The position numbers were made by a program, and so were the translations under genes. Below the pieces are notes generated by a model. It ran no database searches. It saw only the letters and a program-made list of their open reading frames with translations, and was not told where the DNA came from. Below, piece by piece: positions 23,461 through 46,799 of a stretch of 64,000 bases of DNA (its first letter is position 1; each line of letters begins with the position of its first letter). Source of the DNA: Desulfovibrio sp. JY (lineage in GTDB: Bacteria > Desulfobacterota > Desulfovibrionia > Desulfovibrionales > Desulfovibrionaceae); assembly GCA_021730285.1 (NCBI GenBank), contig CP082962.1, forward strand, positions 744,001 through 808,000, read 5' to 3'.

Positions 23461-24075
23461 GGCATTCCTCCTCAGTGCGGTTGCGGTCAACCGGGAACAG
23501 ACGCGGTTTCGATATGAGACAAAAATAATCCTTTTTATCCTTCGGTCAAGAAAAAAAAGTGTTTTTCCTCCCTTCTTCCGAGGCAATGGCATTATCCAAC
23601 CGTAATATTTAAGAAACATTAAAATTTGCTAAAAAATGACAAGGACCTTGCTTGCCCCTCTCAGGAAGCCAGCGCAAGGGCATCCCCTGGCGCGGCCAAC
23701 GCGGGATGCCGTTTGCGTTGTTCTCTTGGCTGGCGGTTGATCGGCGGCGGCTGGTTGGTCGCTGGCAGCTAGCTGTTGGTCGCCTTGGGGGGGGCGTGGC
23801 GGCGCGCGGCGCATATTTGAAGAATACGCCTTCGCCGCCACGCCCCCCCAAGGCGACCCAGATCACGCATCTCCAAAGCGGGAGCAGTCCTGGCACTGCC
23901 GCCGATCCGGCTCGGACAGACGGCCAAGCGATCCATACGACAAAGGCAATTCCTGATCGGTTGGAGCGACAGCACATTGCCTGAGCCCCCGCCTCCCAAT
24001 GTGAATAACACTACACATCATACTGATATATTTACCGTTGAAAGTTTTTGAAGGGGGTCCAGGGGGAAACTTTTT
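23461..24075. other. 615-base gene-free interval carrying family 3 and family 1 elements
   Basis: No plausible coding sequence. The part next to 23460 is AT-rich (23520-23640) and may hold the promoter of the DVU0772-like gene. The middle holds the family 3 element and repeats of GGTTGATCGGCGG/GGTTGGTCGCTGG type just before it (about 23736-23790). The right end holds a family 1 hairpin. Confidence 0.55.
23778..23894. repeat. Family 3 element, copy 1 (TGAAG core in a long stem)
   Basis: The arm GGTCGCCTTGGGGGGG and GCGTGGCGGCG pairs with 23832-23858 over about 26 bases. The inner core GGCGCATATTTGAAG followed by AATACGCC is identical in all three copies. After the stem comes GATCACGCATCTCC and AAGCGGGAGCAGTCCTG, partly conserved in the other copies. 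Confidence 0.75.
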
Positions 24076-24094
24076 TCAAAAAGTTTCCCCCTGG
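24059..24094. repeat. Family 1 single hairpin (GGGGGAAAC type) at a gene end
   Basis: CCAGGGGGAAAC pairs with GTTTCCCCCTGG. The stop codon of the Spy-like gene falls inside it. Confidence 0.78.
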
Positions 24095-24519
24095 CCGCCG
24101 CGACGAGCCACCTGGACTCTGGCCCGCGCCGCCTTGAGGCGCTCCTCGCGGTACGCGCGCACCTGAGTCATCTTCTCCGGGGGCAACACGGCCGCCAGCT
24201 TGGCGTCGGTTTCATCGGCCAGGGCGCGCAGGTCCTTACGCAGGGCCAGCATACCGGCCATGCCGGGATTGGTGGCCAGGCGGGCGCGGGCGATGTCCTG
24301 GCGCTTTTTGGTTTGTTCGATCAGGATGGGACGCATGGCGCCCTTTTCCTTCGGCGAAAGGGCCACATGGGCGGCCACGTCGCGCAGAGAGGCGTCGGCC
24401 AGCTTCTCGGGCGGCTGGGAGAGTTGCGCCGGAAGCTCGGCGGCGTGGACGCCCGACGCCACGGCCAGGAGCAGCACGGCTATGGCGAGGGCTTTTGTCA
24501 GCAAAGCTTTGTAACGCAC
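24076..24519 (-). CDS. Periplasmic Spy/CpxP-like protein
   Basis: A 147-residue protein from a GTG start with GGAGG 6 bases upstream. A signal peptide covers about residues 1-24, ending VASGVHA before AELPAQL. The mature part is all-helical, with LSPKEKGAMRPILIEQTKKRQ and LRALADETDAKLAAVLPPEKM, which resembles the LTxxQ helices of Spy and metal-resistance sensor proteins. It may act as a periplasmic chaperone or stress sensor. The last residues (GQGETF) come from the family 1 hairpin, so the native tail was probably changed. Confidence 0.7.
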   Translation of the reverse strand: MRYKALLTKALAIAVLLLAVASGVHAAELPAQLSQPPEKLADASLRDVAAHVALSPKEKGAMRPILIEQTKKRQDIARARLATNPGMAGMLALRKDLRALADETDAKLAAVLPPEKMTQVRAYREERLKAARARVQVARRGGQGETF

Positions 24520-24748
24520 GAAAAACCTCCGCAGGGACGGTGTCCCGTTTCTGGACAGGCAGTCGGGCGCGGCAAGACGGCGGTTACAGGCCGCCGGGGA
24601 CAGTCGCCCCCGGGCTGGACGACGGGGCAGGCCGCGCGTAGGAACCCTGGGCTCCGGGGCTGCTCTGGCGAATGCTCCGCCCTCTTGAAACGAAAGCGCC
24701 CCGAAACCCCTGTGCCCGCCCGGCAGCCAGCGCGGTAGAGGTGGGAAA

Positions 24749-25912
24749 ATGTCCGCAGACGAGCCGCAACGCCGGGACTGGCTCCCGGTCATCCTTTTGG
24801 CGTTCGCCACCTTTGTCTTCAACACGACGGAATTCGCGCCCATCTCGTTGTTGGGCGACATCGCGCAATCCCTGGACGTCACCACGGCCAAGGCCGGACA
24901 GCTCGTCACCATCTACGCCTGGATGGTCGCGATCCTTTCCCTGCCCCTCATGCTCGCCTGCGCCAAAATGGAGCGGCGCGGGCTGCTGCGCAACGTGTTC
25001 CTGGTCTTCATCGCCAGCCATGTCGTTTCCGGTCTGGCCGGCAACTATTACGTCCTGCTGCTCTCGCGCATCGGCGTGGCCTGCGCCCATTCCATATTCT
25101 GGTCCATCGTCATCCCGATGGGCATCCGCGTGGCGCCGAAAAATTACGAATCCCGGGCGCTCGGCATCCTGTCCATGGGATCGGCCGTGGCCCTGGTGAT
25201 GGGCCTGCCGCTCGGGCGGGTGATCGGCCTGCATCTGGGCTGGCGCATGACGTTCGTCTGCATCGGCGCCATGGCGCTTGTGGCCATGGCGGCGCTCATG
25301 CGCCAACTCCCCGTGATGCCGAGCCGGCACGCCGGAAATTTCAAAAGCCTGCCGAGCCTTTTCAAACGTCCGGCCCTTGTCGGCCTGTATATTTTGACCG
25401 TGGTGCTGATTACCGGCCATTTCACGGGCTACACGTACATCGAGCCGTTCATCACCCGGGTGGCCCGGGGCAGCGAGGATTTCGCGACCCTGGTGCTGCT
25501 CGTGTTCGGCCTGGCCGGCATTGCGGGGTGTTATCTGTTCATCCGCTGCAACCCCAAGCACCCCTTGGCCACCTTTACCGTACCGGTGTGCCTGACGGCC
25601 GTGTGCCTGCTGCTCCTGCGCCCCGTCATGGGAAGCCTGCCCGCGCTGCTGACGGTGTGCGCGGTCTGGGGCATGGCCATGTCCGCCGTCAATCTGGTCT
25701 TGCAGTACAATGTGGTGAAGGTGGCCCCGGACGCGACGGACGTGGCCATGTCCATCTATTCCGGCATCTACAATATCGGCATCGGATCGGGGGCGTTGGT
25801 GGGGGGACTGGTCACCGTCCACATGGGCCTTGATGCCGTGGACAACGTGGCCGGGGCCATCGCCGTGGCCGCCAGCCTCTGGTGCCTGTATTATCTGCGC
25901 CGCGTCGGCTGA
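24749..25912 (+). CDS. MFS transporter, SotB-like
   Basis: A 387-residue major facilitator with twelve hydrophobic segments. The N-terminus NTTEFAPISLLGDIAQSLDV, the loop KMERRGLLRN and LGILSMGSAVALVMGLPLGRVIG match the drug:H+ antiporter-1 subfamily, including SotB/YdeA sugar-efflux proteins. It sits in the inner membrane. The GAGG ribosome site is good. It is divergent from the Spy-like gene, with about 230 bases between. The substrate is unknown; sugar efflux is a guess from family resemblance. Confidence 0.8.
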   Translation: MSADEPQRRDWLPVILLAFATFVFNTTEFAPISLLGDIAQSLDVTTAKAGQLVTIYAWMVAILSLPLMLACAKMERRGLLRNVFLVFIASHVVSGLAGNYYVLLLSRIGVACAHSIFWSIVIPMGIRVAPKNYESRALGILSMGSAVALVMGLPLGRVIGLHLGWRMTFVCIGAMALVAMAALMRQLPVMPSRHAGNFKSLPSLFKRPALVGLYILTVVLITGHFTGYTYIEPFITRVARGSEDFATLVLLVFGLAGIAGCYLFIRCNPKHPLATFTVPVCLTAVCLLLLRPVMGSLPALLTVCAVWGMAMSAVNLVLQYNVVKVAPDATDVAMSIYSGIYNIGIGSGALVGGLVTVHMGLDAVDNVAGAIAVAASLWCLYYLRRVG

Positions 25913-25948
25913 TCGCGCCGGCGCACGCGTGCTTCCCGATCTTCCAGG

Positions 25949-26650
25949 CTACCCGCAGCGGCGAAGCACGGCCAAGGCGGCCCCGGCCTGGGCGGCCACG
26001 GTGGTTTCGCCAAGCTGCCAGCCGTCGTACAGCTCGAACGCGGCCGTGTCCTGTTCCAGACCCGAAAGCGCGGCCAGCAGCGTGCGCGCGGGATCGGGCT
26101 TGATGCGGGCAAGCGCCAGGCAGGCCAGGCCCCGGGCGGCCGGGTCGCAGTCGGCAAGCGCGGCCGTGATTTCTTTCAGGCCATGGGCGGCCAGCTCGGG
26201 CGCGGCCTCGGCCAGCCGGGCCACGGCCCACCAGGCCCCGCGCCGCAGCGGCGCATGGTCGATGAACGTGCAGTCGCCCTCCATGTCCTGGACATAGGAG
26301 ACGAGCACCCGGTGGTAGTCGGCGGCCAGCACCGGGCAGACGGCCAGCGTCTCGCCCATGCATTCCGGAATGCCCCAGCCGATGTTGCCGGACTCCTCGT
26401 TGACGCGCCACATGAGGTTGCGCCAGACGTCGCGGGCGTCCTCCAGGCGGGCGGCGGCGATGTCCGCCATGGCCGCGCCAAAGGCGGTAACGGCACGCCA
26501 GCGCACAAGGGCGTCCGTATCGAGCAGCAGCGAAAAAAGCGGCCCCAGACGCGTCTTGGCCGCAACACCGGCCAGTTCCGCCAACCCGGCTTCCTGGTCG
26601 CCCAAAAGCGCCTGCCGCACCCGCGCTATGAGTTCCCTACGCGATGTCAT
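25949..26650 (-). CDS. HEAT-repeat-like protein of the DVU0298 type
   Basis: A 233-residue helical protein. Repeated helix pairs (LLDTDALVRWRAVTAFG, RRGAWWAVARLAEAAPEL, DPAARGLACLALARI) look like HEAT or PBS-lyase repeats, used for protein-protein contacts. The central WRNLMWRVNEESGNIGWGIPE is striking and conserved-looking; I recall this as the DVU0298 type found in Desulfovibrio. The partner is unknown. It has no signal peptide and should be cytoplasmic. Confidence 0.7.
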   Translation of the reverse strand: MTSRRELIARVRQALLGDQEAGLAELAGVAAKTRLGPLFSLLLDTDALVRWRAVTAFGAAMADIAAARLEDARDVWRNLMWRVNEESGNIGWGIPECMGETLAVCPVLAADYHRVLVSYVQDMEGDCTFIDHAPLRRGAWWAVARLAEAAPELAAHGLKEITAALADCDPAARGLACLALARIKPDPARTLLAALSGLEQDTAAFELYDGWQLGETTVAAQAGAALAVLRRCG

Positions 26651-26691
26651 GGATGTTCATCCTTGAGGAAGGGAAGAAAGAGGGAAACAGT

Positions 26692-26902
26692 GCGAGAGGG
26701 GAAACCCTTTCAGGAAAGGGTTCTCCCCTCTCGCGCTCTCCCCTTCCTAAAGTTTTCAATGGGGAGGGGCAGTGCCTTCAAGGGGTTTTCCATCCCTTAT
26801 CCTTGTGAAAAGGATAAAATCACAATTCCCTTTTACCCCTTTAAAAGTCTTTTGAAAGGGGGTCCGGGGGGAAACTTTTCGTAAGACAAAGTTTCCCCCC
26901 GG
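26692..26902. repeat. Family 1 composite element with extra inner hairpin
   Basis: GCGAGAGGG hairpin (26692-26734) and GGGGGGAAAC hairpin (26864-26902). Between them lies a further inverted repeat, TTATCCTTGTGAAAAGGATAA (about 26797-26817). The second hairpin ends 26 bases past the stop of the TPR gene. Confidence 0.75.
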
Positions 26903-26927
26903 ATAGCATATCCGTCCCCTTCCTCTC

Positions 26928-27557
26928 TTACTTGGCCAAAGCGGCTTCGATTTCGCGGACCATGTCGGGGTGGGGTTCGTAGCCGGTGGTGCGGGCGCGT
27001 TCCACGAATTCCTTGGCCTTGGCGAAATCGCCGCGTTCCATGGCGATAAGGGCCAGGTTGTTGAGGGCCGGGCCGAACATGGGCTCGATCTCCAGGGCCT
27101 TGGTGCTGTGAAATTCCGCGCTTTCGAGATCGCCCTTCATGAACAGCGCGCTGCCGAGGGTGGCCATGGCCTGGACGTATTTGGGGTCGATCTTGATGGC
27201 CCGGCGCAGGGCCTTTTCGGCCTTGTCCACCTCGCCGCGCTGCAGATGCACGAAGCCGATGTTGCCGTAGGGCACGGCGAAAAGGGGCCGGGCCCGGCAG
27301 GCCTTCTCGTTCCACTCCAGGCAGCCGTCGAGGTCGCCCTTGTTCATGGCCAGGCCGCCCAGCTGGACAAAGCCCTCGGCCAGGCCCGGCGAGCATTCCA
27401 CGGCCTGGTGGAATTCCGCCTCGGCCTCGATCAGCCGTCCCTTGGCCACGTAGGCCGTGCCCAGGTTGTAATGGGACACGCCGCAGCCGGGGTTTTGCGA
27501 CAGGCGCTTTTTGATTTCGTCGATGAATTCGTCGGGAGTCTGGGCGGTGTATTCCAT
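26928..27557 (-). CDS. Tetratricopeptide-repeat protein
   Basis: A 209-residue cytoplasmic TPR protein with five or more repeats of about 34 residues, for example SHYNLGTAYVAKGRLIEAEA, PYGNIGFVHLQRGEVDKAEK and ALNNLALIAMERGDFAKAKE. TPR arrays mediate protein-protein contact. It is the last gene of a minus-strand run after the YkgJ-like gene and a small conserved gene, with only 20 bases to the gene ahead, so it is likely co-transcribed. Partner unknown. Confidence 0.85.
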   Translation of the reverse strand: MEYTAQTPDEFIDEIKKRLSQNPGCGVSHYNLGTAYVAKGRLIEAEAEFHQAVECSPGLAEGFVQLGGLAMNKGDLDGCLEWNEKACRARPLFAVPYGNIGFVHLQRGEVDKAEKALRRAIKIDPKYVQAMATLGSALFMKGDLESAEFHSTKALEIEPMFGPALNNLALIAMERGDFAKAKEFVERARTTGYEPHPDMVREIEAALAK

Positions 27558-27577
27558 GCGCGTTCCTTACCTCGGTT

Positions 27578-27937
27578 CTATTTGGTCGGGCCAAGTTCGG
27601 CGTCGACGCCTTCCCTGGCCAACAGTTCCTTGTACCATTTGCAAAAGGCGTACATGCCCTGGTGCTTTTCCGAGCCGTTCATGACCCCCATGCACACTTC
27701 CCAGGCGCCCTTGGCGAATTCGTTCGACGCGCCCTTGTGGGCGGCCAGGAATTCGTTGACCAGTTGCTGCCCGGTGCGGCGCGAGGCGTCCTCGCGCATA
27801 TCCAGGGGATCGTTGGGCTCCTGGAAGGGGTCCCAGGCATCGAAGCCGATCTTGTCGATGAAGCGGCGGCGACGGGGGCTCAGCTTTTCGTACATGGCGC
27901 GCTTGGCAGCCGCAAGATCCTCGGGCGAAAGAGCCAT
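27578..27937 (-). CDS. Conserved small protein, function unknown
   Basis: A 119-residue soluble protein: MALSPEDLAAAKRAMYEKL, RRRRFIDKIGFDAWDPFQEP, then KGAWEVCMGVMNGSEKHQGM. Its start codon abuts the stop of the YkgJ-like gene. The Trp-rich WDPFQEPNDPLDMR stretch and the conserved gene group (YkgJ-like, TPR, ferredoxin) suggest a Desulfovibrio-specific family. No motif supports a function. Confidence 0.65.
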   Translation of the reverse strand: MALSPEDLAAAKRAMYEKLSPRRRRFIDKIGFDAWDPFQEPNDPLDMREDASRRTGQQLVNEFLAAHKGASNEFAKGAWEVCMGVMNGSEKHQGMYAFCKWYKELLAREGVDAELGPTK

Positions 27938-28786
27938 CTACTTCTCCCCGTCCGTATCGCCATCGGCGTCGGGGCCCGGAATCACCCAGGTTGTCGAGCC
28001 GCCGCAGGAAGCGCAGGCCGAAGACCCGGGGGCCTCGCCGCACGAGCCGCAGTTCGCGCCATTGGCCTGGGACGCCGCCATGGGAGCCTGGGCCGCGGCC
28101 GGCGGGGCCGGCGGCATCTGCACCAGGTCGTCCTCGGTCACGATGCCGAGGTATTCCTCGTCGTATTCGGTGATAAGCGCCAGGGACACCGGCACCAGCA
28201 TGTCGCCCATCAGCGGCAGCTTGGTCGGCAGCGAGGCCACCACGTCCTGGGACAACAGCATGAGCTTGTCCTGGAGCTTTTCGATCTTGACCGTGGGGTA
28301 GCGACCGCCTTGCTCGAATCCGGCCTTGCCGCAAATATGGGCTTCGCCGCCGATCTCGAGGGGCACGCCGTACAGCCGGCAGGTGATGGGGCGGGAATGA
28401 TAGAGGATGCAGCGGTCGTCGTCGCCGAGAAGCGGGCAGCGGATGCGCTCCCGAGCCAGGTCGGCCAGGATCTCGCTGGTCGGCACGCCCTGCTCGCCGG
28501 CCCGAAACGCCTTGCGCTTGAGCTTGTAGTGCTCGCGGTCGGCCTTGTTGGCCCGCTCCAGGACGGCGTCGCGCGCCGCACCGGGGGGAAAGGCCTCGTT
28601 GAATTTGTGGTTAAGGTGCAGGGCCTCGATAAAGGTCAGGTCGAACAGGGCATGGCAGCAATCGCTGCATCCCTCGCCGCAGGCGACCATACCGGGGCAG
28701 GCCTTGGCCACCTTGGCGAAAACGGCGTCGGCCTCGGCGGCAATGGCTTCGTAACGGGCAAAGGCTGGGGAAAAATCCAGGGGCAT
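27938..28786 (-). CDS. YkgJ-type zinc/iron-chelating Cys-cluster protein
   Basis: A 282-residue protein. The N-terminal half has ACGEGCSDCCHAL, then IRCPLLGDDDRCILYHSRPITCRLYG, the Cys pattern of the YkgJ (CxxxCxxCC) family thought to bind Zn or an Fe-S centre. The C-terminus has a Pro/Ala linker and a second Cys set, CGSCGEAPGSSACASCGG. That tail, two CxxC pairs, is unusual for the family and could bind another metal. Start 28786 is chosen because the upstream part is low-complexity. Function unknown. Confidence 0.8.
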   Translation of the reverse strand: MPLDFSPAFARYEAIAAEADAVFAKVAKACPGMVACGEGCSDCCHALFDLTFIEALHLNHKFNEAFPPGAARDAVLERANKADREHYKLKRKAFRAGEQGVPTSEILADLARERIRCPLLGDDDRCILYHSRPITCRLYGVPLEIGGEAHICGKAGFEQGGRYPTVKIEKLQDKLMLLSQDVVASLPTKLPLMGDMLVPVSLALITEYDEEYLGIVTEDDLVQMPPAPPAAAQAPMAASQANGANCGSCGEAPGSSACASCGGSTTWVIPGPDADGDTDGEK

Positions 28787-28917
28787 GGCTTGGGCTCCAC
28801 GAACGTCCCGGGCCGTGCGCCCATCACGCGGCTCCGCGAGGGTCAAACGGCCCGGGCCGGAGACGGTAACGGGAGCGGACGGCGGTCGACCACTCCCGTT
28901 GCCGGTTACTAGGCGAT

Positions 28918-29106
28918 CTACTCTTCCTCGACGACGATGGCGTCCTGGTCGCAAACCTCGACGCAGGATTCACAGCCCAGGCACTCTTCCATGTTCACGG
29001 CCACGGCCTTGCCGTCGCGCAGCTCATAGACCTCGACCGGGCAGACATCCACACATTCACCGTCGCCGATACACTTCTTCGTATCGACAATGACTTTGTA
29101 TCCCAT
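28918..29106 (-). CDS. Ferredoxin with Asp in place of one cluster Cys (7Fe type)
   Basis: A 62-residue ferredoxin. The first cluster motif reads CIGDGECVDVCP, so an Asp stands where the second Cys would be. The second reads CLGCESCVEVCD, a full set. In Desulfovibrio ferredoxins this Asp form holds a [3Fe-4S] cluster that can convert to [4Fe-4S], next to a regular [4Fe-4S]. It is a cytoplasmic electron carrier, perhaps for pyruvate oxidation. GGAGG precedes ATG 29106. Confidence 0.92.
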   Translation of the reverse strand: MGYKVIVDTKKCIGDGECVDVCPVEVYELRDGKAVAVNMEECLGCESCVEVCDQDAIVVEEE

Positions 29107-29491
29107 GAACAACCTCCGGGCAACAGAGCACAATAAATGTATTTTTTCCAAGGAATGGCGGCAGCTTACACGTGCACGCCCGAAAGATCCGGAAAAGTTT
29201 ACGCAGGATTAGCCCCGGCGTGATTCCGTGTCAAGGGAACTGGCCGCAAGCGGCGCGGCGTTGCGCCCGGGGGAGCCGGGGCAACTTTTTTTCTTGTTTT
29301 TTTTCCGAAACCGACCGAACCGTGAGGGGCATGTAACCGGTCACGCTTTTATACGTCTTCTCCATCCCCCTTAAAGAAATGATACTTTTTTTAAATAAAG
29401 CTCTAAAGTTCCTGGTGGACATGGCCGAAAGGAAGGATGAAGCCTAACTATAAACTTTTCACGCAGGGATGCCTGAAAGCCAGGGAAGGCC
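29107..29491. other. Gene-free interval between divergent ferredoxin and glycosyltransferase genes
   Basis: About 385 bases, AT-rich next to the ferredoxin start and around 29280-29430, with T runs and several hairpin-prone spots such as CCCGGGGGAGCCGGGG. It must hold the ferredoxin and glycosyltransferase promoters, but I find no close sigma-70 or sigma-54 match. Confidence 0.4.
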
Positions 29492-30436: not shown

Positions 30437-30584
30437 GGAAGAAGCGCAATCTCGAAAAGCATCCGTTTGCAGCGGCTTCACTTTACCCAATTCTCCAACA
30501 TTGCCGCGAGGATTCCTGTGTCCGGGCGAACGCCGTACCAATGGGCAGGCACATCCCGTGCTATCCTCAGGGCAACAGCGTCAT

Positions 30585-32582: not shown

Positions 32583-32764
32583 GCGTTGGGGTGGTTCACA
32601 GCCACGAGGAGAGGCACCTGGACCATAATGGCGGAAGAACATGGCGTCATCGTGGCGGCGACCGCCTTTGCTTGACGTCGACTCAAGCATGTTGCCGCAT
32701 CTCGTTGTTCCCTTCATCCCGAGTAGTAGCTTTCCGTTCTTTTTGCGTTCCGCGCTCGACCGGC

Positions 32765-34105
<1,341 letters not shown>

Positions 34106-36482: not shown

Positions 36483-36512
36483 CCTTTCGCGTCTTTTACG
36501 CCTTTTTTTCGC

Positions 36513-36541
36513 GGGCGGGGGGGAGTTCCCCTCGCCCTTTT
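36513..36541 (+). terminator. Intrinsic terminator of rplU-rpmA
   Basis: GGGCGGGGGGGA pairs with TCCCCTCGCCC around AGT and is followed by TTTT. It starts about 30 bases after the rpmA stop. Confidence 0.8.
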
Positions 36542-36666
36542 CGCGTTGGGCTCCTCTTTCCCGGCCGGCGGTTGCCCTTTGCGCGGGGTATGCGTACTTC
36601 TGCAGACAACCATCCGGCCCCTAAACGGATCGGTCGGTTCGGCCGATAGGCAAGGGTGGAGGACCC

Positions 36667-37695: not shown

Positions 37696-37719
37696 GCCCG
37701 GCGACTCCAGGGCGAAGCT

Positions 37720-38586: not shown

Positions 38587-38637
38587 GCGCGCAGGCGTCG
38601 GCCTTTGCGGAAGGCCTGCCGGGGACCGGCCGGATTC

Positions 38638-39132: not shown

Positions 39133-39172
39133 CGTTACGGTGATGTTTTTTCCCAATGAGTCGTCGGATGAA

Positions 39173-39286
39173 GGCCGGGGGGAGGGGGAGCGGCCGCGCG
39201 CGGCGCATATTTGAAGAATACGCCTTCGCGTCCGCTCCCCCTCCCCCCCGGCCCAGGTCGCCCGCTCCATATGCGGGAGTGCTCCC
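39173..39286. repeat. Family 3 element, copy 2 (TGAAG core in a long stem)
   Basis: The arm GGCCGGGGGGAGGGGG and AGCGGCCGCG pairs with 39227-39253 over about 26 bases. The core GCGCATATTTGAAG and AATACGCC matches copies 1 and 3 exactly. After the stem: AGGTCGCCCGCTCC and ATGCGGGAGTGCTCC. Confidence 0.75.
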
Positions 39287-39461
39287 TTGCGTGCGTTGCA
39301 TAGTGGCATACGCGCAGCCCAGGCCCCACATACCATTTTCGCTTTCAAAAAGGTGGGGAATCAAACCGCCCCCACCGGAAACAATAACCACCATTGAATT
39401 ATAACAACTCGTTATAATTCAACTTTAGATATTATCCCCGCTGAAAGTTTTTGAAGGGGGT

Positions 39462-39497
39462 CCAGGGGGAAACTTTTTTCAAAAAGTTTCCCCCTGG
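39462..39497. repeat. Family 1 single hairpin (GGGGGAAAC type)
   Basis: CCAGGGGGAAAC pairs with GTTTCCCCCTGG. It is followed by GCCGCCGGAGGCAT, the flank shared with family 2, and lies 32 bases past the stop of the diguanylate cyclase gene. Confidence 0.78.
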
Positions 39498-39528
39498 CCG
39501 CCGGAGGCATTTCCCCTGCGCCGCCTCG

Positions 39529-40494
39529 TTACGCCAGGGGGCGCACTTCGACGCGGTTGCGGCCGCCGCTTTTGGCTTGGTAGAGAGCCGCATCCGAGGC
39601 GGCGAGCAGGGCCTCGGGCTCGATATCCATGTTGGGGACGATGCCCGAGATACCGATGCTGACGGTGATGGTGTCCGCCGCCGGGGAACTGGCGTGCTCG
39701 ATGGCCGCCGCGCGCACGTTGGCCCGGATGAGCCCGGCGATGGACAGGGCTCCGGCCAGATCGGTGCCGGGCAGCAGGGCCACGAACTCCTCGCCGCCGT
39801 AGCGGGCCACGAAATCACCGGGACGCTTGAGCGCCGCCTCGATGGCCTCGGCCACCTGGCGCAGGCACAGGTCGCCTTGCAGATGGCCATAGGTGTCGTT
39901 GTAATTCTTGAAAAAGTCGATATCGATCATGAGCGCCGAAAGCGGCATGCCTTCACGCCGCGCGCGCAGCCATTCCTTGTGGAAGACGTCCTCGAAACAG
40001 CGCCGGTTGGGCACGCCGGTCAGCCCGTCCTGGTTGGAGAGCTGCTCGAACTTGCGGGTGAGCGCCTCGAGCTCGCGTTCGCGGGCCTTGCGCTGATCCA
40101 TCTCTTCCTTGAGCCGCAAGGCCGAACGGACCCGCGCCCGCAGTTCCATGCTGTTGACGGGCTTGGCCAGAAAATCCATGGCCCCGGCCTCGAAGGCGCG
40201 CTCCAGGCTGCCGGCCTCGTCCTTGACCGTGACGATGATGACGGGGATATCGCGCAGGCGCGGATCGGCCTTGATCAGCCGGGTGGCGTCGATGCCGTCC
40301 ATGTCCGGCATGACCACGTCCATAAGTACGAGATCCACGTCCGGAGCATCGTATTTGCGGCACCGCTCGTCGAGCAGGGCCAAAGCCTCGCCGGCCGAGC
40401 CGGCGCATAACGGCTCGACGTAGCCGGCCCCCTTGAGAATGGTGGACAGCAGCAGGCGGGAAGAGTCGGAGTCGTCCACGATCAGGATGTTCAT
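39529..40494 (-). CDS. Response regulator-diguanylate cyclase (PleD-like)
   Basis: A 321-residue protein. The N-terminal receiver (about 1-125) has VDDSDSSR, the phospho-accepting Asp in DLVLMDVVMPD and the Lys of LAKPVNS. A coiled linker (ELEALTRKFEQLSNQ) leads to a GGDEF domain: DGLTGVPNRRCFE, LMIDIDFFKNYND and the active site RYGGEEFVALL. It makes cyclic di-GMP when phosphorylated. A feedback I-site RxxD is not obvious before the active site. Start 40494 (MNILIVDDS) is the normal receiver start. Confidence 0.92.
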   Translation of the reverse strand: MNILIVDDSDSSRLLLSTILKGAGYVEPLCAGSAGEALALLDERCRKYDAPDVDLVLMDVVMPDMDGIDATRLIKADPRLRDIPVIIVTVKDEAGSLERAFEAGAMDFLAKPVNSMELRARVRSALRLKEEMDQRKARERELEALTRKFEQLSNQDGLTGVPNRRCFEDVFHKEWLRARREGMPLSALMIDIDFFKNYNDTYGHLQGDLCLRQVAEAIEAALKRPGDFVARYGGEEFVALLPGTDLAGALSIAGLIRANVRAAAIEHASSPAADTITVSIGISGIVPNMDIEPEALLAASDAALYQAKSGGRNRVEVRPLA

Positions 40495-40667
40495 GCCGAT
40501 CCCGGTGCGTGTTGCCTGGCCCAAAACCACGCGACGCATGCCGCGCGACTAGGCCGGAAAGAAGCCCGGCAGCCGAAGCGCCGTGACCGTCGTGACATGA
40601 TCCGGCAGGCCAGACAGAGTGCTTGTCACGCTTCGTATCTTGCCCCAACAGGGGAAAAAAGCAACCA

Positions 40668-41444
40668 TCAGCCGGCCGGACCACCCGGCGCGGCGCCCAC
40701 GCGACCGGCCAACCGCTCCATGGTGTCCCGGTCCGTGAAGTCGAAACGCAACGGCGTGAGCGTGACGTAGCCTTCCGTCAGAATGGCCCGGTCGGTATCG
40801 GGCGAGAGCGCCTCGGGGGGGATGACGCCGGTCAGCCAATAATAGTTGCGGCCGCGGGGGTCCTGGCGGGTGACGTACCAGTCGTTGTACACGGCGGACG
40901 TCGGCGGGCACAGCCGGATTCCCTTGACCTCGTCCACGGGACAGGAGGGGAAATTGAGGTTGAGCACGCAACGCGGCGGCGCGACCTCCCAGGGACGGGT
41001 GGCCAAAAACTCGGCCACGTAGCGGCCCTGGCCGGTCAGATCCACCGGGGCGTAGTTGTCATGGGACACGGCCACGGCCGGATAGCCCATGAGCGCCCCT
41101 TCGGTTGCGGCCGAGACCGTGCCGGAATAGATGATGTCCACCCCGACGTTGGCTCCGGCGTTGATGCCGGAAACGACCAGATCGGGCGGGGACGGGCACA
41201 GGGTCGTGAGCGCCAGCTTGACGCAGTCGGCCGGCGTGCCGGAAACACCCAGGCCCTTGAAGCCGTTTTCCGAAAATTCCTTGACCCGAAGCGGCATGGC
41301 GATGGTGATGGCATGTCCCACCGCCGACTGTTCGGATATGGGCGCGACGACCGTGACCTCGTGGCCGGCGGCCACGAGCCCCTTGTAGAGGTCGCGGATG
41401 CCAACGGCCTGGATGCCGTCGTCGTTTGTCAACAGGATGCGCAT
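40668..41444 (-). CDS. surE: 5'/3'-nucleotidase SurE
   Basis: A 258-residue survival protein E. MRILLTNDDGIQA gives the metal-binding Asp-Asp, then VVAPISEQSAVGHAITI, GTPADCVKLAL, GINAGANVG and SGTVSAATEGALMG complete the family. It removes phosphate from nucleoside monophosphates. The upstream continuation of the frame is rejected. It is divergent from the HD-domain gene. Confidence 0.95.
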   Translation of the reverse strand: MRILLTNDDGIQAVGIRDLYKGLVAAGHEVTVVAPISEQSAVGHAITIAMPLRVKEFSENGFKGLGVSGTPADCVKLALTTLCPSPPDLVVSGINAGANVGVDIIYSGTVSAATEGALMGYPAVAVSHDNYAPVDLTGQGRYVAEFLATRPWEVAPPRCVLNLNFPSCPVDEVKGIRLCPPTSAVYNDWYVTRQDPRGRNYYWLTGVIPPEALSPDTDRAILTEGYVTLTPLRFDFTDRDTMERLAGRVGAAPGGPAG

Positions 41445-41559
41445 GTCGTCTCCTCCGAGGCGTCCCCCCGGCTGAGGCACTATGCCCAAGGCGGCCGGGA
41501 TTGACAACCGCCCCTCCCCCGGGCAATTTTCCTTTTCCTGCAACATCAGTGACACCAAC

Positions 41560-42588
41560 GTGACCCGCAAAACACAGTTCATACAAGACCTCACCCCGGG
41601 CCAACCCGCCGCCAACGTGTTCCTCATCGGCGCGGCCAGACTCGGGCAGGCCAAAAACGGCCCCTTCTGGACGCTCACCCTGCAAGACGCCTCCGGAGAG
41701 ATCGAAGCCAAGATCTGGAGCCCGGCCGCCCAGTCCTACGCCGACCTGGCCGGCGGCCAGTTCGCCTTTGTCGAGGGGCAGGTCGGGGCCTACCGTGACC
41801 GGCCGCAAGTCAATATCGAGCGGCTGCGCGTGCTTTCGCCCGAGGAATACGCGCCGGATCTGGCCCAGTTCGTGCCTTCGAGCGCCGAGCCGCCCGAAGG
41901 GCTGCTGGAAAAGCTGACCGAACTGTGCCGGGCCGAAATTTCCCACGCCCCCTGGCGCAAGTTCTGCGCCAAGGTGCTGTCCCATCCGGAATTCCGGGAC
42001 AAGATCCTCGAAGCGCCGGGCGCGAAAAACGTCCACCACTCCTACCGGGGCGGGCTGCTCGAACACACGCTGGCCGTGGCCAATCTGGTGCTCTCCATCT
42101 GCGACCGCTACCCGGCCCTTGACCGCGACACCCTGCTCGCCGCCGCCGTGTGCCACGACCTGGGCAAGGCCTGGGAACTCACCTCCGGCCCGACCCGGGA
42201 CTACACCGACGCCGGCCGGCTGCTCGGGCATATCGTCATCACCCTGGAGCTGGTCGAGCCGCTTCTGAAAAAATCCGGCATCGAGCCGGAACTGGCGCTC
42301 CACTTCAAGCACATCCTGGTGGCCCACCACGGCGAGTACGAATTCGGCTCGCCCAGGCGTCCCAAGACCGCCGAAGCCTTCGTGCTGCACTTCGCCGACA
42401 ATATCGACGCCAAGATGAACCAGATTTTCAATACTCTTGAGACCGAGGAGCCCGGCCAGTGGTCGCCCTACGTGCGCACCCTGGAACGCTACCTCTACAA
42501 CCCCCCGCGGACGCCGCGCGAAACCCCGGTCAAAAACAACAAGCCCCGGGAAAAGGACGCCCAATGTTTATTACCTTTGAAGGCATAG
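41560..42588 (+). CDS. HD-domain protein, YhaM-like 3'-5' exoribonuclease
   Basis: About 342 residues from a GTG. The start [14 protein letters not shown] and the OB-fold ([18 protein letters not shown]) are typical of the YhaM family. The HD domain has [26 protein letters not shown] and a late [11 protein letters not shown], where His-Asp pairs bind metals. It degrades short RNA in the cytoplasm. The frame is open to an ATG at 41482, which would put the start only 38 bases from surE; GTG 41560 leaves room for promoters, but no ribosome site decides. Confidence 0.8.
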
Positions 42589-43199
42589 AGGGCTCGGGCA
42601 AGTCCACCCAGATCGCGCTCCTGAAGTCCGCCCTGGAAGCGACCGGCAAGAGCGTCGTCACCACGCGTCAGCCCGGCGGCTGCCCGCTTGGCGAAACGCT
42701 GCGTTCCATCCTGCTCTCCACCCAGACCAAGAACCTGGACCACCGGGCCGAACTGTTTCTCTACCTGGCCGACCGGGCCCAGCACATCGCCGAGGTCATC
42801 CGCCCCGCCCAAAACGCCGGGCATATCGTCCTTTGCGACCGCTTCGCCGACTCCACCGTGGTCTACCAGGGCTACGGCCGGGGCCTCGACGTGGCCATGC
42901 TCCACGAACTCAACGACATCGCCGTGGCCGGAGCCTGGCCCCAGCGCACCATCCTGCTCGACCTCGAGCCGGAACAAGGCCTGCGACGCGCCCTGGCCCG
43001 CAACCTCAAGACCGGAAACTGCGTCACCGAAGGCCGCTTCGAGGCCGAAGACATCGATTTCCACACCCGCATCCGCGACGGCTACCTGGCCCTGGCCAGC
43101 CTGCACCCCAGACGCTACGCCGTCATCGACGCCACCCCCGACGTCGACACCGTGGCCAAGGCCGTCTGGGAAGCCGTCTCCAGCCGTATGGGAGCGTAA
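42564..43199 (+). CDS. tmk: Thymidylate kinase
   Basis: A 211-residue kinase that makes dTDP from dTMP. It begins [17 protein letters not shown] (P-loop), has the DRF motif of [19 protein letters not shown], and ends near the family length. The usual TREPGG box reads TRQPGG here. The ATG at 42564 overlaps the end of the HD-domain gene by 25 bases, so they are coupled. Confidence 0.94.
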
Positions 43200-43216
43200 G
43201 ATTTTTAAAGAGAGAA

Positions 43217-43256
43217 CCGGGGGGAAACCTTTCTTGCAGAAAGGTTCTCCCCCCGG
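43217..43256. repeat. Family 1 single hairpin (GGGGGGAAAC type)
   Basis: CCGGGGGGAAACCTTTC pairs with GAAAGGTTCTCCCCCCGG around TTGCA. It lies 18 bases past the tmk stop. Confidence 0.78.
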
Positions 43257-43402
43257 ACCCACTCAACAAATACTATATCCAAAGACGTTCTACCATACCA
43301 AGAATAATACTAATTCTTGAGCAGCAATAAAGACAGAAAGAACCAAGATTTCCATGTCCCAACGAACACCCCCAGACGGTTTTCCACAACCAGGAGGAAG
43401 AT

Positions 43403-43810
43403 ATGGACTGGAAAAGAGTTGTAAATAATTTTAAATCTAAACGGAGACATATACCAGAAGAAAAAGACTGGGCAGATGCGTACCACGACAAGTCTATCGA
43501 CTCCCAGTTTGCTATTAGAGATGCTTATCGCAACAAACTCGAAAGATACTTAACATGGATGGACCCTAAATCACTTGGTGCCATGTCAAGAGAAATAGAT
43601 GACGCGACACTAAGAATTATGAAAAAATCTTTTTATATCATCATTCTAGTATCTATAATATCATGGCTTTTTGGTTATCAATCTTGTCGAAGCAACGCAG
43701 TTGATTTTATTGAACCAAGTATAATTTGCAATGACAGCACTACAGAGGAATGTATAGAGAGAACTTGGCGTATTCAAAAATATATGGAAAAATACCTTGC
43801 CCTTTTTTAA
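43403..43810 (+). CDS. AT-rich small membrane protein, unknown
   Basis: A 135-residue ORF with a good ribosome site (GGAGG at about 43392) and one TM helix (SFYIIILVSIISWLFGY, about residues 76-92), with a charged N-terminal domain of about 70 residues and a Cys-containing C-terminal part (CRSN, ICND, EECIER) outside or in the periplasm. GC content is far below the window average and codon use differs. It is probably transferred. No family recognised. Confidence 0.55.
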   Translation: MDWKRVVNNFKSKRRHIPEEKDWADAYHDKSIDSQFAIRDAYRNKLERYLTWMDPKSLGAMSREIDDATLRIMKKSFYIIILVSIISWLFGYQSCRSNAVDFIEPSIICNDSTTEECIERTWRIQKYMEKYLALF

Positions 43811-44153
43811 ATTCATAACAACTTCATACCATCATACAAAACAACAAGCATCACAACAAGACACGAACCTGCCAATACGCAAGGCATACCACTCTTGCCA
43901 CGTCGCCGATCATTAAACATTTAGACATTCAAGTGCACGCAAATATTATCCTCCATAGCATAGCACCATCATTTTAACGACACACCATATTCATTCTATT
44001 TCTGGCAACATTCTCCTTTCAAACGGATTACCCTTCTCCTCTGTCATTTCAAAGTACCTAAGGAACCGACAAGTGCCCCGGTCACTTGCGTGTGCCTCAT
44101 TGCGCGTCTTGGCCGTGAGCCGTTAGAAAGGGGGAGACCTGAAGGAGGTTCCC
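43811..44153. other. AT-rich gene-free interval
   Basis: About 340 bases with low GC up to about 44060, then normal. No ORF, tRNA or clear palindrome was seen. AAGGAGG at about 44142 belongs to the gene that follows. Confidence 0.4.
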
Positions 44154-44807
44154 ATGAACGTTCTGGCCATAAACGGCAGCCCGCGCAAGAAATGGAACAC
44201 CGCCACCCTGCTTGAAAACGCCCTTGAGGGGGCCAGGGAAGGCGGCGCGAATACCAAGCTCGTCCACCTGTACCAGCTGGACTACAAGGGCTGCATCAGC
44301 TGCTTCGAGTGCAAAAAGATCGGCGGCAAAAACTACGGCCGCTGCGCGGTGAAGGACGGCCTGACGCCGCTTCTGGAAGAGGCGGGACAGGCCGACGCGC
44401 TCATCCTCGGCACGCCGGTCTATTTCAGTGCGGAGACCGGCATGATGCGGTCGTTTTTCGAGCGCCTGGCCTTCCCCTACCTGACCTACACCCCGGGCTA
44501 TGCGTCACTTTTCACGCGCAAAATCCCGACGGCCCTCGTGTACACGATGAACCTTCCCGAGGAAGTGCTGCCCGAGTGGGGCTACGATATCTCCATGGAG
44601 CGCATGCGCGGGATCATGGCCCGCACCTTCGGAGCCTGCGAGCTGTTTTGCTGCACGGACACCTATCAATTCTCGGACTATTCCAAATATCTGTCCACGG
44701 TCTGGGACGCGGCGGCCAAGGCCAAACGGCATGAGGAAGTCTTCCCCAAGGACTGCGAAAAAGCCCGCGCACTCGGACGGCGACTGACTGAGGGCATGCC
44801 CGCCTAG
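44154..44807 (+). CDS. Flavodoxin-family FMN reductase-like protein
   Basis: A 217-residue protein. AINGSPRKKWNTATLLE is the FMN-phosphate loop and ILGTPVYFSAETGMM the flavin-ring loop of the NADPH-dependent FMN reductase/iron-sulfur flavoprotein group. Cys residues in YKGCISCFECKKIGG are characteristic of the multimeric-flavodoxin type, some of which bind a [4Fe-4S] cluster. It probably reduces quinones, nitro compounds or metals. Strong ribosome site AAGGAGG. Single gene. Confidence 0.8.
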   Translation: MNVLAINGSPRKKWNTATLLENALEGAREGGANTKLVHLYQLDYKGCISCFECKKIGGKNYGRCAVKDGLTPLLEEAGQADALILGTPVYFSAETGMMRSFFERLAFPYLTYTPGYASLFTRKIPTALVYTMNLPEEVLPEWGYDISMERMRGIMARTFGACELFCCTDTYQFSDYSKYLSTVWDAAAKAKRHEEVFPKDCEKARALGRRLTEGMPA

Positions 44808-44841
44808 GCCTCGAGGCCTTACAAGTTTCCGAAAGAGCGAA

Positions 44842-45008
44842 CCGGGGGGAAACCTTTCTTGCAGAAAGGTTCTCCCCCCGGGCCCCCTTTCCAAAGACTC
44901 TTAACAGTTACAAGGCATCGCCGCTTATCCAGCTGTAACCGTTAAAAGTTTTTGGGAGGGGAGAGCGCGAGAGGGGGACCCTTTTTTCAAAAAGGGTCCT
45001 CCTCTCGC
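44842..45008. repeat. Family 1 composite element (GGGGGGAAAC hairpin, then GCGAGAGGGG hairpin)
   Basis: It is nearly identical to the unit at 19791-19956, including TTAACAGTTAC and GTAACCGTTAA in the spacer. It lies between the convergent flavodoxin-family and pspC genes. Confidence 0.82.
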
Positions 45009-45037
45009 ATCTCTTCCATTCCTGCCCTTCTTCCTTT

Positions 45038-45424
45038 TCAGGAACGACGCAGGCGGCGGTCGAAGTCGAACTCCCGCGAGGTGACGTGGTCTTCGAGCCG
45101 CCGGATGCGCTTGTCCAGCCGGTCGAAGCGGCGCTTGACCCGGGCCAGGGTATGGGTGCGGGACGAGACGTAGTCGTCGTAAAAGGCCCGTTCCTCGTCG
45201 GAATCCGGGGGCAGCACGGGCTCGGGCTTGATGACGAAACCGGCGATCAGGTAGGCCCCGACCATGGGCCATACGCCCGTGAAAAAGGTCAGGATGACAA
45301 TGAAAACCCGCATCCAGAAGACCGGCACGTCCAGAAAACGGGCCAGCCCCTTGCACACGCCAAGGAACATGCCGGAGCGGGAGCGGTAGAGTTGATTTAG
45401 GCGCAATTCGCTGTAGTGCCTCAT
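45038..45424 (-). CDS. pspC: PspC-domain protein (second copy in the locus)
   Basis: A 128-residue protein with the PspC core LYRSRSGMFLGVCKGLARFL followed by a TM segment VFWMRVFIVILTFFTGVWPMVGAYLI. The C-terminus ends in RRLEDHVTSREFDFDRRLR, which also ends the first copy (45805-46236). PspC sits in the inner membrane and relays envelope stress. The start overlaps the stop of pspB (ATGA). Confidence 0.9.
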   Translation of the reverse strand: MRHYSELRLNQLYRSRSGMFLGVCKGLARFLDVPVFWMRVFIVILTFFTGVWPMVGAYLIAGFVIKPEPVLPPDSDEERAFYDDYVSSRTHTLARVKRRFDRLDKRIRRLEDHVTSREFDFDRRLRRS

Positions 45425-45669
45425 TGCCCGTCCTCCCTGCCGCGCCCCGGATCGAGCACCAGGGCTTCGAGGTTTTCGACGCGGTCTTCCAGCCGGGACA
45501 GACTGCGGTGGATTTCCTGAAGCAGTTGAGCCTCCTCGGCATCGTTCCCCCGGGGCTTTGGCGCGCCCGGACGAACCAGCCGGATGCCGAGCAGGAAAAT
45601 GGTCCCCAGGATCACCAACCCGACCACCGTGGCTCCGGCCATGACCAATGCCGTAATCAGTCCCATCAT
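45421..45669 (-). CDS. pspB: PspB-like membrane protein (second copy)
   Basis: An 82-residue protein: one N-terminal TM helix (ALVMAGATVVGLVILGTIFL), then a coiled coil with LLQEIHRSLSRLEDRVENLEAL typical of PspB. It is coupled to the following pspC by ATGA. It works with PspC to keep PspA and PspF in the right state. Confidence 0.82.
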   Translation of the reverse strand: MMGLITALVMAGATVVGLVILGTIFLLGIRLVRPGAPKPRGNDAEEAQLLQEIHRSLSRLEDRVENLEALVLDPGRGREDGQ

Positions 45670-45760
45670 AGTTGTTTCCTTATTCTTCCTTCCACATCAG
45701 GCGCAAAGGCAACCCGGCTCTTCCCATATCCACCCCGTTAAAGTTTTTCGGGGAGGGGGT

Positions 45761-45800
45761 CCGGGGGAGGGACCTTTTTTCAAAAAGGTCCCTCCCCCGG
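45761..45800. repeat. Family 1 single hairpin (GGGGGAGGGACC type)
   Basis: CCGGGGGAGGGACC pairs with GGTCCCTCCCCCGG around TTTTTTCAAAAA. It lies 5 bases past the first pspC stop, so it separates the two pspBC pairs. Confidence 0.75.
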
Positions 45801-45804
45801 CATC

Positions 45805-46236
45805 CTACTTCCTCCGCTCCGTCTCGCCGAGGCGGCGGTCGAAGTCGAATTCCTTGGAGGTCACGTGGGATTCCAGACGGCCGATGCGCGCCTCGAGGTC
45901 CTGGGCCCGGTCGCGCACGGTATGGGCCTGCGCATCCAGCCGGACGCCGGTGACATCGATGGTGCGCGGCTCGCCCGCGTATTGCGGTTCGGGGCGCAGG
46001 AGCAGCGCGCAGGCCAGATAGATGATGAGCGCCGGCCAGCCCACGGTGAGAAAAAGCACCACGAAAAAGGCCAGCACCACCCAGGTCGGCAGCCCCAGCC
46101 AGCCGGCCAGCCAGGCGAAGCCGCCGGTGACCAAGCCGTCGCGCCGGGGGCGATCGCCCCGGTCGAAGCCTGGGCGGGGAGAGCTTACGAGGCGGCGGCT
46201 GTCCCGCCGTCCGCTACAGCAACCACGGTTTCTCAT
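45805..46236 (-). CDS. pspC: PspC-domain protein (first copy)
   Basis: A 143-residue protein with GLVTGGFAWLAGWLGLP and a TM segment (VVLAFFVVLFLTVGWPALIIY). The N-terminus is Arg-rich and longer than usual, with RNRGCCSGRRDSRR. The C-terminus ends GRLESHVTSKEFDFDRRLG, matching the second copy. It overlaps pspB (46233) by ATGA-type coupling. Confidence 0.82.
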   Translation of the reverse strand: MRNRGCCSGRRDSRRLVSSPRPGFDRGDRPRRDGLVTGGFAWLAGWLGLPTWVVLAFFVVLFLTVGWPALIIYLACALLLRPEPQYAGEPRTIDVTGVRLDAQAHTVRDRAQDLEARIGRLESHVTSKEFDFDRRLGETERRK

Positions 46237-46487
46237 GACTTGCCTCGCTTGTCCGCGTCCCGTTCCATCAGGGTCTCCAGATTGCGGACCCGGTCTTCCA
46301 GCCGCGTCAGGGTGGCCCGGACCTCTTCCAGCAGGGCCACGGCCTCGGTATCGGCATCGCGTCCGGCCCGCTCCACCCGGTCGCGGCGGCGGCGCAGGGC
46401 GGCGATGGCCGCGATGACCACCACGATAAGCAGGATTTGCCAGAGGAAATGGCCGCCCCCGTAAAAAAATGCATGGTGCCCGTACAC
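46233..46487 (-). CDS. pspB: PspB-like membrane protein (first copy)
   Basis: An 84-residue protein with one TM helix (FLWQILLIVVVIAAIAAL) and a coiled coil ALLEEVRATLTRLEDRVRNL that matches the other PspB copy. It lies after pspA on the minus strand, separated by about 500 bases that contain a family 3 element. Confidence 0.78.
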   Translation of the reverse strand: MYGHHAFFYGGGHFLWQILLIVVVIAAIAALRRRRDRVERAGRDADTEAVALLEEVRATLTRLEDRVRNLETLMERDADKRGKS

Positions 46488-46688
46488 ATTTTCTCCTTCA
46501 TGCGCCGGCAGGTCCCGCCGACTGTATCATCCGAAGCTGACCTGCCCTTTCTCCCCCGTCAAGAGGGTCCGGGCGACATCACGTCCCCCGGTGGAGGCGG
46601 GAGGGACAAAGGCGTCCCGGTTGCCGGAGCAACGGCGTTTCTTATCGCAGTCGACAGCGCATTCCGTTGCCCTATTCCGTCGGCTGGC

Positions 46689-46799
46689 CGGCTCGGGGCG
46701 GGGCGATCGCGCGCGGCGCATATTTGAAGAATACGCCTTCGCGCTCGCCCCACCTCGAGCCGCCCCTGGTCACACGTCCCATAGCGGGAAGCAATCCTG
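46689..46799. repeat. Family 3 element, copy 3 (TGAAG core in a long stem)
   Basis: The arm GGCTCGGGGCGGGGCGATCG pairs with 46740-46760, including some G-T pairs. The core GCGCATATTTGAAG and AATACGCC is identical to the others. After the stem: TGGTCACACGTCCC and ATAGCGGGAAGCAATCCTG. Confidence 0.75.

What the first reader, a model, noticed from the sequence alone, without database searches (positions are those of the whole stretch)
23778..46799. Three copies of an element with invariant core and fully covarying long stems
At 23778-23858, 39173-39253 and 46689-46760 an identical core of about 30 bases (GGCGCATATTTGAAG with AATACGCC, itself a hairpin with a TGAAG loop) is held in an outer stem of 20-27 base pairs. 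The stem sequences are unrelated between copies, yet each is self-complementary. Pairing with sequence change is strong evidence that the folded form matters. A tract of about 35 bases after the stem (GRTCRC..., then GCGGGAG and ATCCTG-like) is also partly conserved. All three lie in the same orientation upstream of minus-strand genes. It could be a structured RNA, a folded recombination site or a mobile hairpin. I know no named family that matches.
Basis: partly seen in the sequence, partly recalled or inferred. Interest (0 to 1): 0.82.

Follow-up and report, generated by a model that had tools for sequence, protein, structure and literature searches.

The report
Invariant-tip hairpin repeat behind gene terminators
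In some sulfate-reducing bacteria a short DNA hairpin has spread to dozens of places just past the ends of genes; its tip hardly ever changes while its long arms change freely but stay matched to each other, which marks it as an apparently undescribed repeat family that is useful for testing why bacterial hairpins are kept.

Summary
The three window copies belong to at least 50 in this 4.69-Mb genome; a sister species has at least 27, and another genus of the family has 17 and 23 in two species, with a related tip. In the 45 copies that align without gaps all 24 outer pairs change on both sides. No Rfam family matches.
New here: of 62 exact copies of a terminator palindrome, 31 have an element within 600 bp, all on the same strand, 158-508 bp away; random placement gives 0.8. 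Six species share one copy at glgB-pdxA: identical 23-base tip, three unalignable sets of arms. Tips are found flipped in place between species, as DNA template switching predicts.
Best reading: a new REP-like interspersed hairpin family, read as a folded single strand through its tip; mobiliser and role unknown. It lacks a REP tag, its stems are 20-40 bp, and no Y1 transposase was found in G000, G022 or G062. A 3'-end RNA role remains open.

The parts
23808..23830 (+). Copy 1, invariant 23-nt tip GGCGCATATTTGAAGAATACGCC (core)
23778..23804 (+). Copy 1, 5' arm (G-rich)
23833..23858 (+). Copy 1, 3' arm (C-rich)
23859..23893 (+). Copy 1, partly conserved tail
24059..24094 (-). Terminator-like hairpin of the minus-strand gene to the right of copy 1 (28-mer 24063-24090 exact); it overlaps the called end of that reading frame (24076)
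39202..39224 (+). Copy 2, invariant 23-nt tip
39173..39198 (+). Copy 2, 5' arm
39227..39253 (+). Copy 2, 3' arm
39254..39292 (+). Copy 2, tail
39462..39497 (-). Terminator-like hairpin of the minus-strand gene to the right of copy 2 (39529-40539; response regulator and GGDEF domains)
46715..46737 (+). Copy 3, invariant 23-nt tip
46688..46711 (+). Copy 3, 5' arm
46740..46763 (+). Copy 3, 3' arm
46764..46799 (+). Copy 3, tail
46917..46952 (-). Terminator-like hairpin of the minus-strand PspA/IM30 gene (46984-47664) to the right of copy 3
46589..46877 (.). 289-bp stretch around copy 3 that is missing in the sister species G005 (8-base overlap of the flanking matches); the homologous stretches printed for five more distant species (G012, G013, G011, G002, G004) also show no element

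Best explanation
A new family of interspersed palindromic elements, working like REP elements. Each copy is a 20-40 bp hairpin with a nearly invariant tip and freely changing arms. Shown: one old copy at glgB-pdxA in six species; many copies in G000 and G005, and in two species of another genus; position past gene terminators in most G000 copies, and no copy between divergent genes where both neighbours are known; one strand folds better; the tip is strongly conserved; tips flip in place. Inferred: a tip-recognising protein, not of the Y1 kind in most of these genomes, binds the folded single strand (minus strand of the core, mostly sense to the terminator-bearing gene) and spread the copies. 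The arms only need to pair, and are kept paired by arm-to-arm template switching during replication together with selection for the fold. The place past a terminator is tolerated or targeted because it lies outside transcripts and promoters.
For: Copy number: 50 in G000, 27 in G005, 2 in G002, 1 each in G004, G011 and G012, 0 in the other 8 of 14 genus genomes. 14-mer of the tip in 19 of 288 family genomes, control 0; G022 17, G062 23, G086 2 copies; the hits of 10 of the 19 genomes are not in long stems, leaving 9. CM hits in 7 of 149 family genomes, one of them (G150) without the tip, and in 6 of 297 class genomes, with capped candidates and strict filters. Covariation. 50 of 50 intergenic, tail-side gene pointing at the element in 47, divergent 0 of 50, by my own hexamer gene caller; other genus 0 divergent of 21 with both neighbours known; window background 9 of 58 gene pairs divergent. 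Terminator link: 31 of 62 exact terminators, 31 of 31 same strand, random mean 0.8 and maximum 5; 31 of 50 elements have such an exact terminator, 37 of 50 its 8-mer AAAAAGTT on the tail side; other genus: terminator on the tail side 14, head side 4, none found 10 of 28. Strand polarity: minus strand folds better as RNA in 47 of 50 and 19 of 20; A.C against G.T mismatches on the plus strand 44:22 and 32:7. Tip conservation: 4 of 276 changed against 89 of 576 arm, 114 of 456 tail and 280 of 681 spacer bases in 12 ortholog pairs; identical in six species at glgB-pdxA. Flips: 2 of 18 ortholog pairs, 1 of 7 valid pairs in the other genus, plus G002. Concerted change: among 41 double-changed pairs 37 are Watson-Crick in both species. 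Tail-side genes of many kinds: 77 Pfam families over the 38 genes scanned, none of the 25 listed in more than 2.
Against: No mobiliser was found: Y1_Tnp gives no match in G000, G022, G062 and G086, and none of 15 fetched Y1 loci of the genus holds the tip; the Y2 search is uninformative because its controls were silent. No clean target-site duplication is shown; the gaps in G005 can be deletions, and at two of three loci remnants of arm or tail point to deletion. The copy at glgB-pdxA is old, which is not what a purely selfish element predicts. In the other genus the orientation to the tail-side gene is mixed (16 against, 9 with). The tip conservation is partly ascertained, since copies were found by the tip, and 12 of the 16 same-orientation pairs were given to (one left out, L046, differs at one tip base). 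In an unselected 787-kb part of G005, of 7 loci 4 kept the element (tips with at most one substitution and, in one, an extra T) and 3 had lost it. Counts of mismatches and double changes are not independent events.
Confidence: 0.5

Rival explanations
1. A structured RNA of 3' ends: the hairpin is transcribed in the sense of the gene before it, by read-through of the terminator, and acts as a second barrier that stops 3' exonucleases, read-through or invasion of the next gene, in the manner reported for ERIC, NEMIS and BIME RNA.
For: Orientation fixed to the tail-side gene in 47 of 50 copies; fold polarity favours that strand, and A.C excess on the plus strand means G.U on the minus strand, in two genera; tip under strong constraint; works for convergent sites (11 of 50) where a leader role cannot.
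Against: Tip orientation flips between species at the same locus, G005 and G002 at glgB-pdxA and L013/L069, L177/L192, which a strand-specific RNA should not tolerate; the element lies beyond a terminator; no transcript data. C-to-T damage on the coding strand, and G.T pairs in single-stranded DNA, could also give the asymmetry.
Confidence: 0.3
2. No function: an old palindrome whose arms are kept complementary only by replication template switching, spread once and now decaying.
For: Template switching is known to homogenise inverted repeats and to invert what lies between; flips are seen here; losses at 3 of 7 unselected loci.
Against: It does not explain why the tip is identical in six species while arms turned over, nor the conserved mismatch, nor the terminator link in two genera.
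Confidence: 0.1
3. A cis-regulatory leader RNA (riboswitch-like) of the gene on the left.
For: 36 of 50 copies have a gene on the left that reads away from the element in the same direction as the tail-side gene.
Against: 11 convergent and 3 other sites have no such gene; arms of 20-40 bp with little sequence constraint; tail-side genes share no function, left genes were not tested; no Rfam match.
Confidence: 0.04
4. A folded single-strand recombination site in the manner of integron attC.
For: Strand-polar hairpin with conserved unpaired bases; tips inverted in place.
Against: attC has a variable tip and conserved base boxes (recalled), the opposite of this; the sites lie between ordinary genes of many kinds. 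An integrase was not searched for.
Confidence: 0.04

Closest known systems
REP elements (GTAG and CGTC families) with their Y1 transposases (RAYT/TnpAREP)
   Same: Short palindromes in dozens of copies in intergenic DNA, patchy between species; some have conserved mismatches and one strand is told from the other; CGTC REPs also lack a dedicated transposase (PMC3733652, PMC8266576, passages read).
   Different: Stems of 20-40 bp against 5-13 bp; no shared GTAG or CGTC tag at the foot; near-invariant tip with free arms; terminator link; no Y1 match in three of the four copy-rich genomes.
ERIC / NEMIS / BIME type interspersed hairpins
   Same: Hairpin repeats near 3' ends of genes; cotranscription and mRNA effects are reported for those (PMC1590033, passages read).
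   Different: Those families conserve their sequence as a whole (recalled); here the arms are replaced and mainly tip, foot and part of the tail are kept.
Template-switch hairpins (quasipalindromes)
   Same: Arms homogenised, piece between the arms inverted in place.
   Different: The cases in the passages read are separate sequences at separate sites; here one tip sequence is shared by all copies.
Intrinsic terminators
   Same: GC-rich hairpin past gene ends.
   Different: No T run after the stem on the plus strand in 50 of 50, on the minus strand TTTT within 24 nt in only 7 of 50; in most copies a separate terminator hairpin lies between gene and element.

Membership tests
REP element mobilised by a Y1 transposase | Palindrome repeated many times in intergenic DNA | tested here: met
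   50 copies, 50 of 50 intergenic by my gene caller
REP element mobilised by a Y1 transposase | GTAG or CGTC tetranucleotide at one foot of the hairpin | tested here: not met
   Either strand, about 21 nt around each foot: GTAG in 4 of 50 copies, CGTC in 11 of 50; not a shared tag. Feet mostly read GGTTGGCC and GGCC-CTGG
REP element mobilised by a Y1 transposase | Stem of 5-13 bp | tested here: not met
   24 outer positions plus 9 tip pairs; range in the cited paper
REP element mobilised by a Y1 transposase | Y1 transposase gene in the genome, flanked by the repeat | tested here: not met
   PF01797: no match in G000, G022, G062; one in G005 without the tip in the 3.4-kb locus
Known structured RNA family (Rfam) | Match above a family's gathering score | tested here: not met
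   Window and 8 loci: 0 matches; at E up to 1, 18 hits below threshold, mostly miRNA families
Structured RNA (new) | Covarying pairs across homologs | tested here: met
   24 of 24 outer pairs on 45 selected copies; but also expected from template switching
Structured RNA (new) | Transcribed | not testable with these tools
   No RNA data available here
Intrinsic terminator | U run directly after the hairpin | tested here: not met
   TTTT after the plus-strand stem 0 of 50, after the minus-strand stem 7 of 50
MITE with target duplication | Target-site duplication at a filled site against an empty site | tested here: inconclusive
   289-bp gap with 8-base overlap at copy 3 and about 357-bp gap with 6-base overlap at L045; both may be deletions

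The most novel reading that the evidence does not exclude
A class of interspersed hairpin that splits its sequence into a constant address (the tip) and exchangeable arms: the arms are continually rewritten by template switching between themselves, which also flips the tip, while an unknown non-Y1 factor recognises the tip and places copies past terminators. The same locus in six species would then be a natural record of compensatory change produced by mutation rather than by selection.
Probability: 0.3. Interest if true: 0.8.

Novelty: new variant of a known kind. Interest (0 to 1): 0.6.

Why it matters
Covariation is the field's main evidence for functional RNA folds. Here is a repeat family in which compensatory changes are abundant and in-place tip inversions, the mark of DNA template switching, are visible between close species. 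It allows a direct test of how much covariation comes from mutation and how much from selection. It also adds a palindromic repeat family with a near-invariant tip, a strong link to terminators and no visible mobiliser, in an environmental family of sulfate reducers.

Tried and rejected
Rfam at gathering score on the window and 8 loci: nothing; at E up to 1 on one copy 18 hits below threshold, mostly miRNA families, taken as chance. Y1 transposase as mobiliser: no match in G000, G022, G062. Y2 transposase: no match in 15 genomes, but the control genomes were silent too, so no conclusion. Viral contigs: 23-mer 0 hits; the 19-mer of the other genus 4 hits, none in a long stem. Plasmids: no match for copy 1. 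Single 14-mer hits in other genera (L142, L146-L153) and L160 in G013 are not in long stems (local pairing scores 0-17, complete members mostly 36-75): taken as chance. G150/L118 is a perfect GC hairpin without the tip: not counted as a member. First covariance model R1 from an unguided alignment gave only 22 pairs and was replaced by R2. Tail as an independent repeat: 14 hits in the genome, 12 of them at elements by position, so not pursued. Arms copied from neighbouring DNA (snap-back origin): considered, not tested. Functional theme among tail-side genes: none seen (38 of the 47 entries given, 25 of 77 families listed). Literature: seven listings by repeat, palindrome, terminator, RNA and genus terms and two on hairpin elements and quasipalindromes showed no description of this family; passages of six papers were read, none in full; subscription journals are mostly not in that library.
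Full report
What is there. The window holds three copies of one element with an identical 23-base tip, at 23808, 39202 and 46715. The genome in which the window lies (G000, 4,686,982 bases, one contig) holds 50 copies with at most one mismatch in the tip, 32 forward and 18 reverse, and none of the reversed control. Pattern counts are floors: two G005 copies whose tips have one extra T were missed by the pattern and found by the covariance model.

Anatomy. Outward from the tip: a short internal loop, four pairs, a position that is unpaired in 37 of 45 copies (C.T 25, C.C 11, T.C 1), then about 20 pairs, a foot GGCC/GGCC, a two-base bulge and a few further pairs that reach into the tail. On 45 copies taken from the 66 scored (no gap and at most 4 unpaired in the first 22 stem positions), 24 of 24 outer pairs change on both sides, 93.7% of cells pair, and 210 cells carry double changes against 50 in shuffles. 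Within this genome the arms are not unrelated: they are G-rich on the 5' side and 62% identical on average. The tail (about 35 bases) is partly conserved and in several copies looks tandemly repeated (by eye).

Where it sits. With a simple hexamer gene caller of my own, 50 of 50 copies are intergenic; the gene on the tail side points at the element in 47; at 36 sites both neighbours run against the core strand, 11 sites are convergent, at 3 both run with it, 0 are divergent. In the window 9 of 58 neighbouring gene pairs are divergent. Between the tail-side gene and the element there is in most copies a conserved terminator-like hairpin (its 8-mer AAAAAGTT in 37 of 50). Its 28-base near-palindrome has 62 exact copies in the genome; 31 of the 62 have an element within 600 bp, all 31 on the same strand, 158-508 bp apart, median 239; random placement gives 0.8 on average and at most 5 in 1000 trials. 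The 38 tail-side genes scanned fall into 77 Pfam families; of the 25 listed none is in more than 2 genes.

Spread. In the genus, 6 of 14 genomes hold the tip: 50, 27, 2, 1, 1, 1. The covariance model R2 rings in 7 of 149 family genomes, one of which (G150) lacks the tip, and in 6 of 297 class genomes; both runs scored a capped number of candidates with strict filters. The 14-base inner tip is in 19 of 288 family genomes with no control hit; only G000, G005, G022 and G062 hold many, G086 two. The single hits of ten genomes (nine of other genera, and G013) and four viral contigs are not in long stems, which leaves nine genomes. The copies of the second genus share the inner tip (usually GATATATTTGAAGAATATC) in stems with 29-42 Watson-Crick pairs (20 complete copies), lie outside called genes in 27 of 28 cases, none between divergent genes of 21 with both neighbours known; the tail-side gene points at the element in 16 and away in 9. 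A terminator like that of one of their loci is on the tail side in 14, on the other side in 4, none found in 10 of 28. Several draft contigs end inside the hairpin, so draft counts are floors.

An old copy. The copies in G002 (two, in an inverted repeat of at least 5.3 kb with 100% identity), G004 and G011 lie between glgB and pdxA (genes named by NCBIfam on the G002 locus), the same place as copy L049 of G000 and its G005 ortholog L073. The G012 copy lies at a contig end with the pdxA side next to it; the glgB side is not held. The 23-base tip is identical in all six. The arms come in three versions that I could not align by eye (G000/G005; G002/G011/G012; G004). They pair in G000, G005, G004 and G011; G012 is cut off, and in G002 the arm next to glgB is mostly lost. 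Relative to the two genes the tip is flipped in G005 and G002 against the other four.

How the arms change. Of 18 ortholog pairs G000/G005 (one G005 copy used twice) 2 have the tip inverted in place. In the 16 others, over 384 stem positions, 296 are unchanged, 37 changed on both sides and are Watson-Crick in both, 47 changed on one side, 4 changed on both without pairing in both (some one-sided changes are shifts from small indels). In the second genus 1 of 7 valid pairs is inverted; an eighth row paired two different copies and is dropped, and one of the seven was not counted because of indels; the five counted show 3 double and 10 single changes. One G000/G005 pair (L043/L124) has eight double changes and no single one. 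Homogenised arms together with inverted spacers are what template switching produces (PMC8604942, PMC8794818; passages read). So the covariation here cannot be credited to selection alone.

Why I still think it matters to the cell or to a mobiliser. In 12 of the 16 same-orientation ortholog pairs the tip changed at 4 of 276 bases, the arms at 89 of 576, the tail at 114 of 456, the spacer at 280 of 681 (spacer and tail values are inflated where alignment fails; L027, both L038 rows and L046 were not given, and L046 differs at one tip base). The copies were found by the tip, which biases this. In 787 kb of G005 taken without regard to the tip, 7 G000 loci map: 4 keep the element (tips exact, or one substitution, or one substitution and an extra T), 3 have lost it, two of these with remnants that point to deletion. 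Half of such a small sample lost is fast turnover. One G005 element there (C1:22514) had no counterpart among the G000 loci held. Template switching does not conserve the tip, nor a mismatch, nor the place past terminators in two genera.

Which strand. The minus strand of the core folds better as RNA in 47 of 50 copies and 19 of 20 of the second genus, and with DNA parameters in 46 of 50. Unpaired cells on the plus strand are A.C more than G.T: 44:22 (63 copies, the fifth position left out, on a pairing that rewarded G.T) and 32:7 (20 copies; of these 20:2 within ten positions of the tip, 12:5 further out). A.C on one strand is G.T or G.U on the other. Positions 7 and 9 carry many of the first set, so events are fewer than cells. 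The minus strand is sense to the tail-side gene in 47 of 50. This fits an RNA, and equally a single-stranded DNA hairpin; C-to-T damage of the coding strand could add to it.

What it is most likely. A REP-like interspersed hairpin, old in the genus and expanded in at least two lineages, read through its tip. It fails the membership test for REP proper: no shared GTAG or CGTC tag, stems longer than the 5-13 bp listed in PMC3733652 (passages), and no Y1 match in G000, G022 or G062. The Y2 search says nothing because its controls were silent. The chief rival is an RNA element of 3' ends like those discussed in PMC1590033 (passages); against it stand the flips. No Rfam family matches. No description turned up in the searches listed in Tried and rejected; I saw listings and passages, no paper in full.

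Window copy 3. In G005 289 bp around it are missing, with an 8-base overlap of the flanking matches; the stretches printed for G012, G013, G011, G002 and G004 show no element there. That fits a gain in the G000/G005 line followed by loss in G005, or a gain in G000; I cannot tell which.

Noticed in passing
window 21341-21368, 21979-22006, 24063-24090, 39466-39493, 46921-46948: A 28-bp near-perfect palindrome GGGGAAACTTTTT..CCCC inside a double hairpin mostly ending GGCCGCCGGAGGC, a dispersed terminator-like repeat; 62 exact copies in the genome and related copies in other genus genomes.
   Followed up: partly
window 45731-45801: Another dispersed repeat: this stretch of the query matches many places in several genus genomes at about 79-87% identity.
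   Followed up: no
L013, L018, L022, L025, L026, L027 (tail side of the core): The tail appears several times in tandem, period about 50-60 bp; the 5' foot is often preceded by NTGG tetranucleotide runs (by eye).
   Followed up: no
G022 C5, C20, C30, C37; G062 C3, C4, C5, C7, C9, C14; G012 C216: Draft contigs begin or end within about 35 bp of the tip: short-read assembly seems to break at these hairpins, so draft counts are too low.
   Followed up: partly
L118 (G150:C85:3465-3520): A perfect long-armed GC hairpin with a tiny loop and no tip motif, found only by the covariance model.
   Followed up: no
L043 (minus-strand core) and L124: Ortholog pair with eight compensatory double changes and no single-sided one: the stem looks replaced as a block.
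   Followed up: partly
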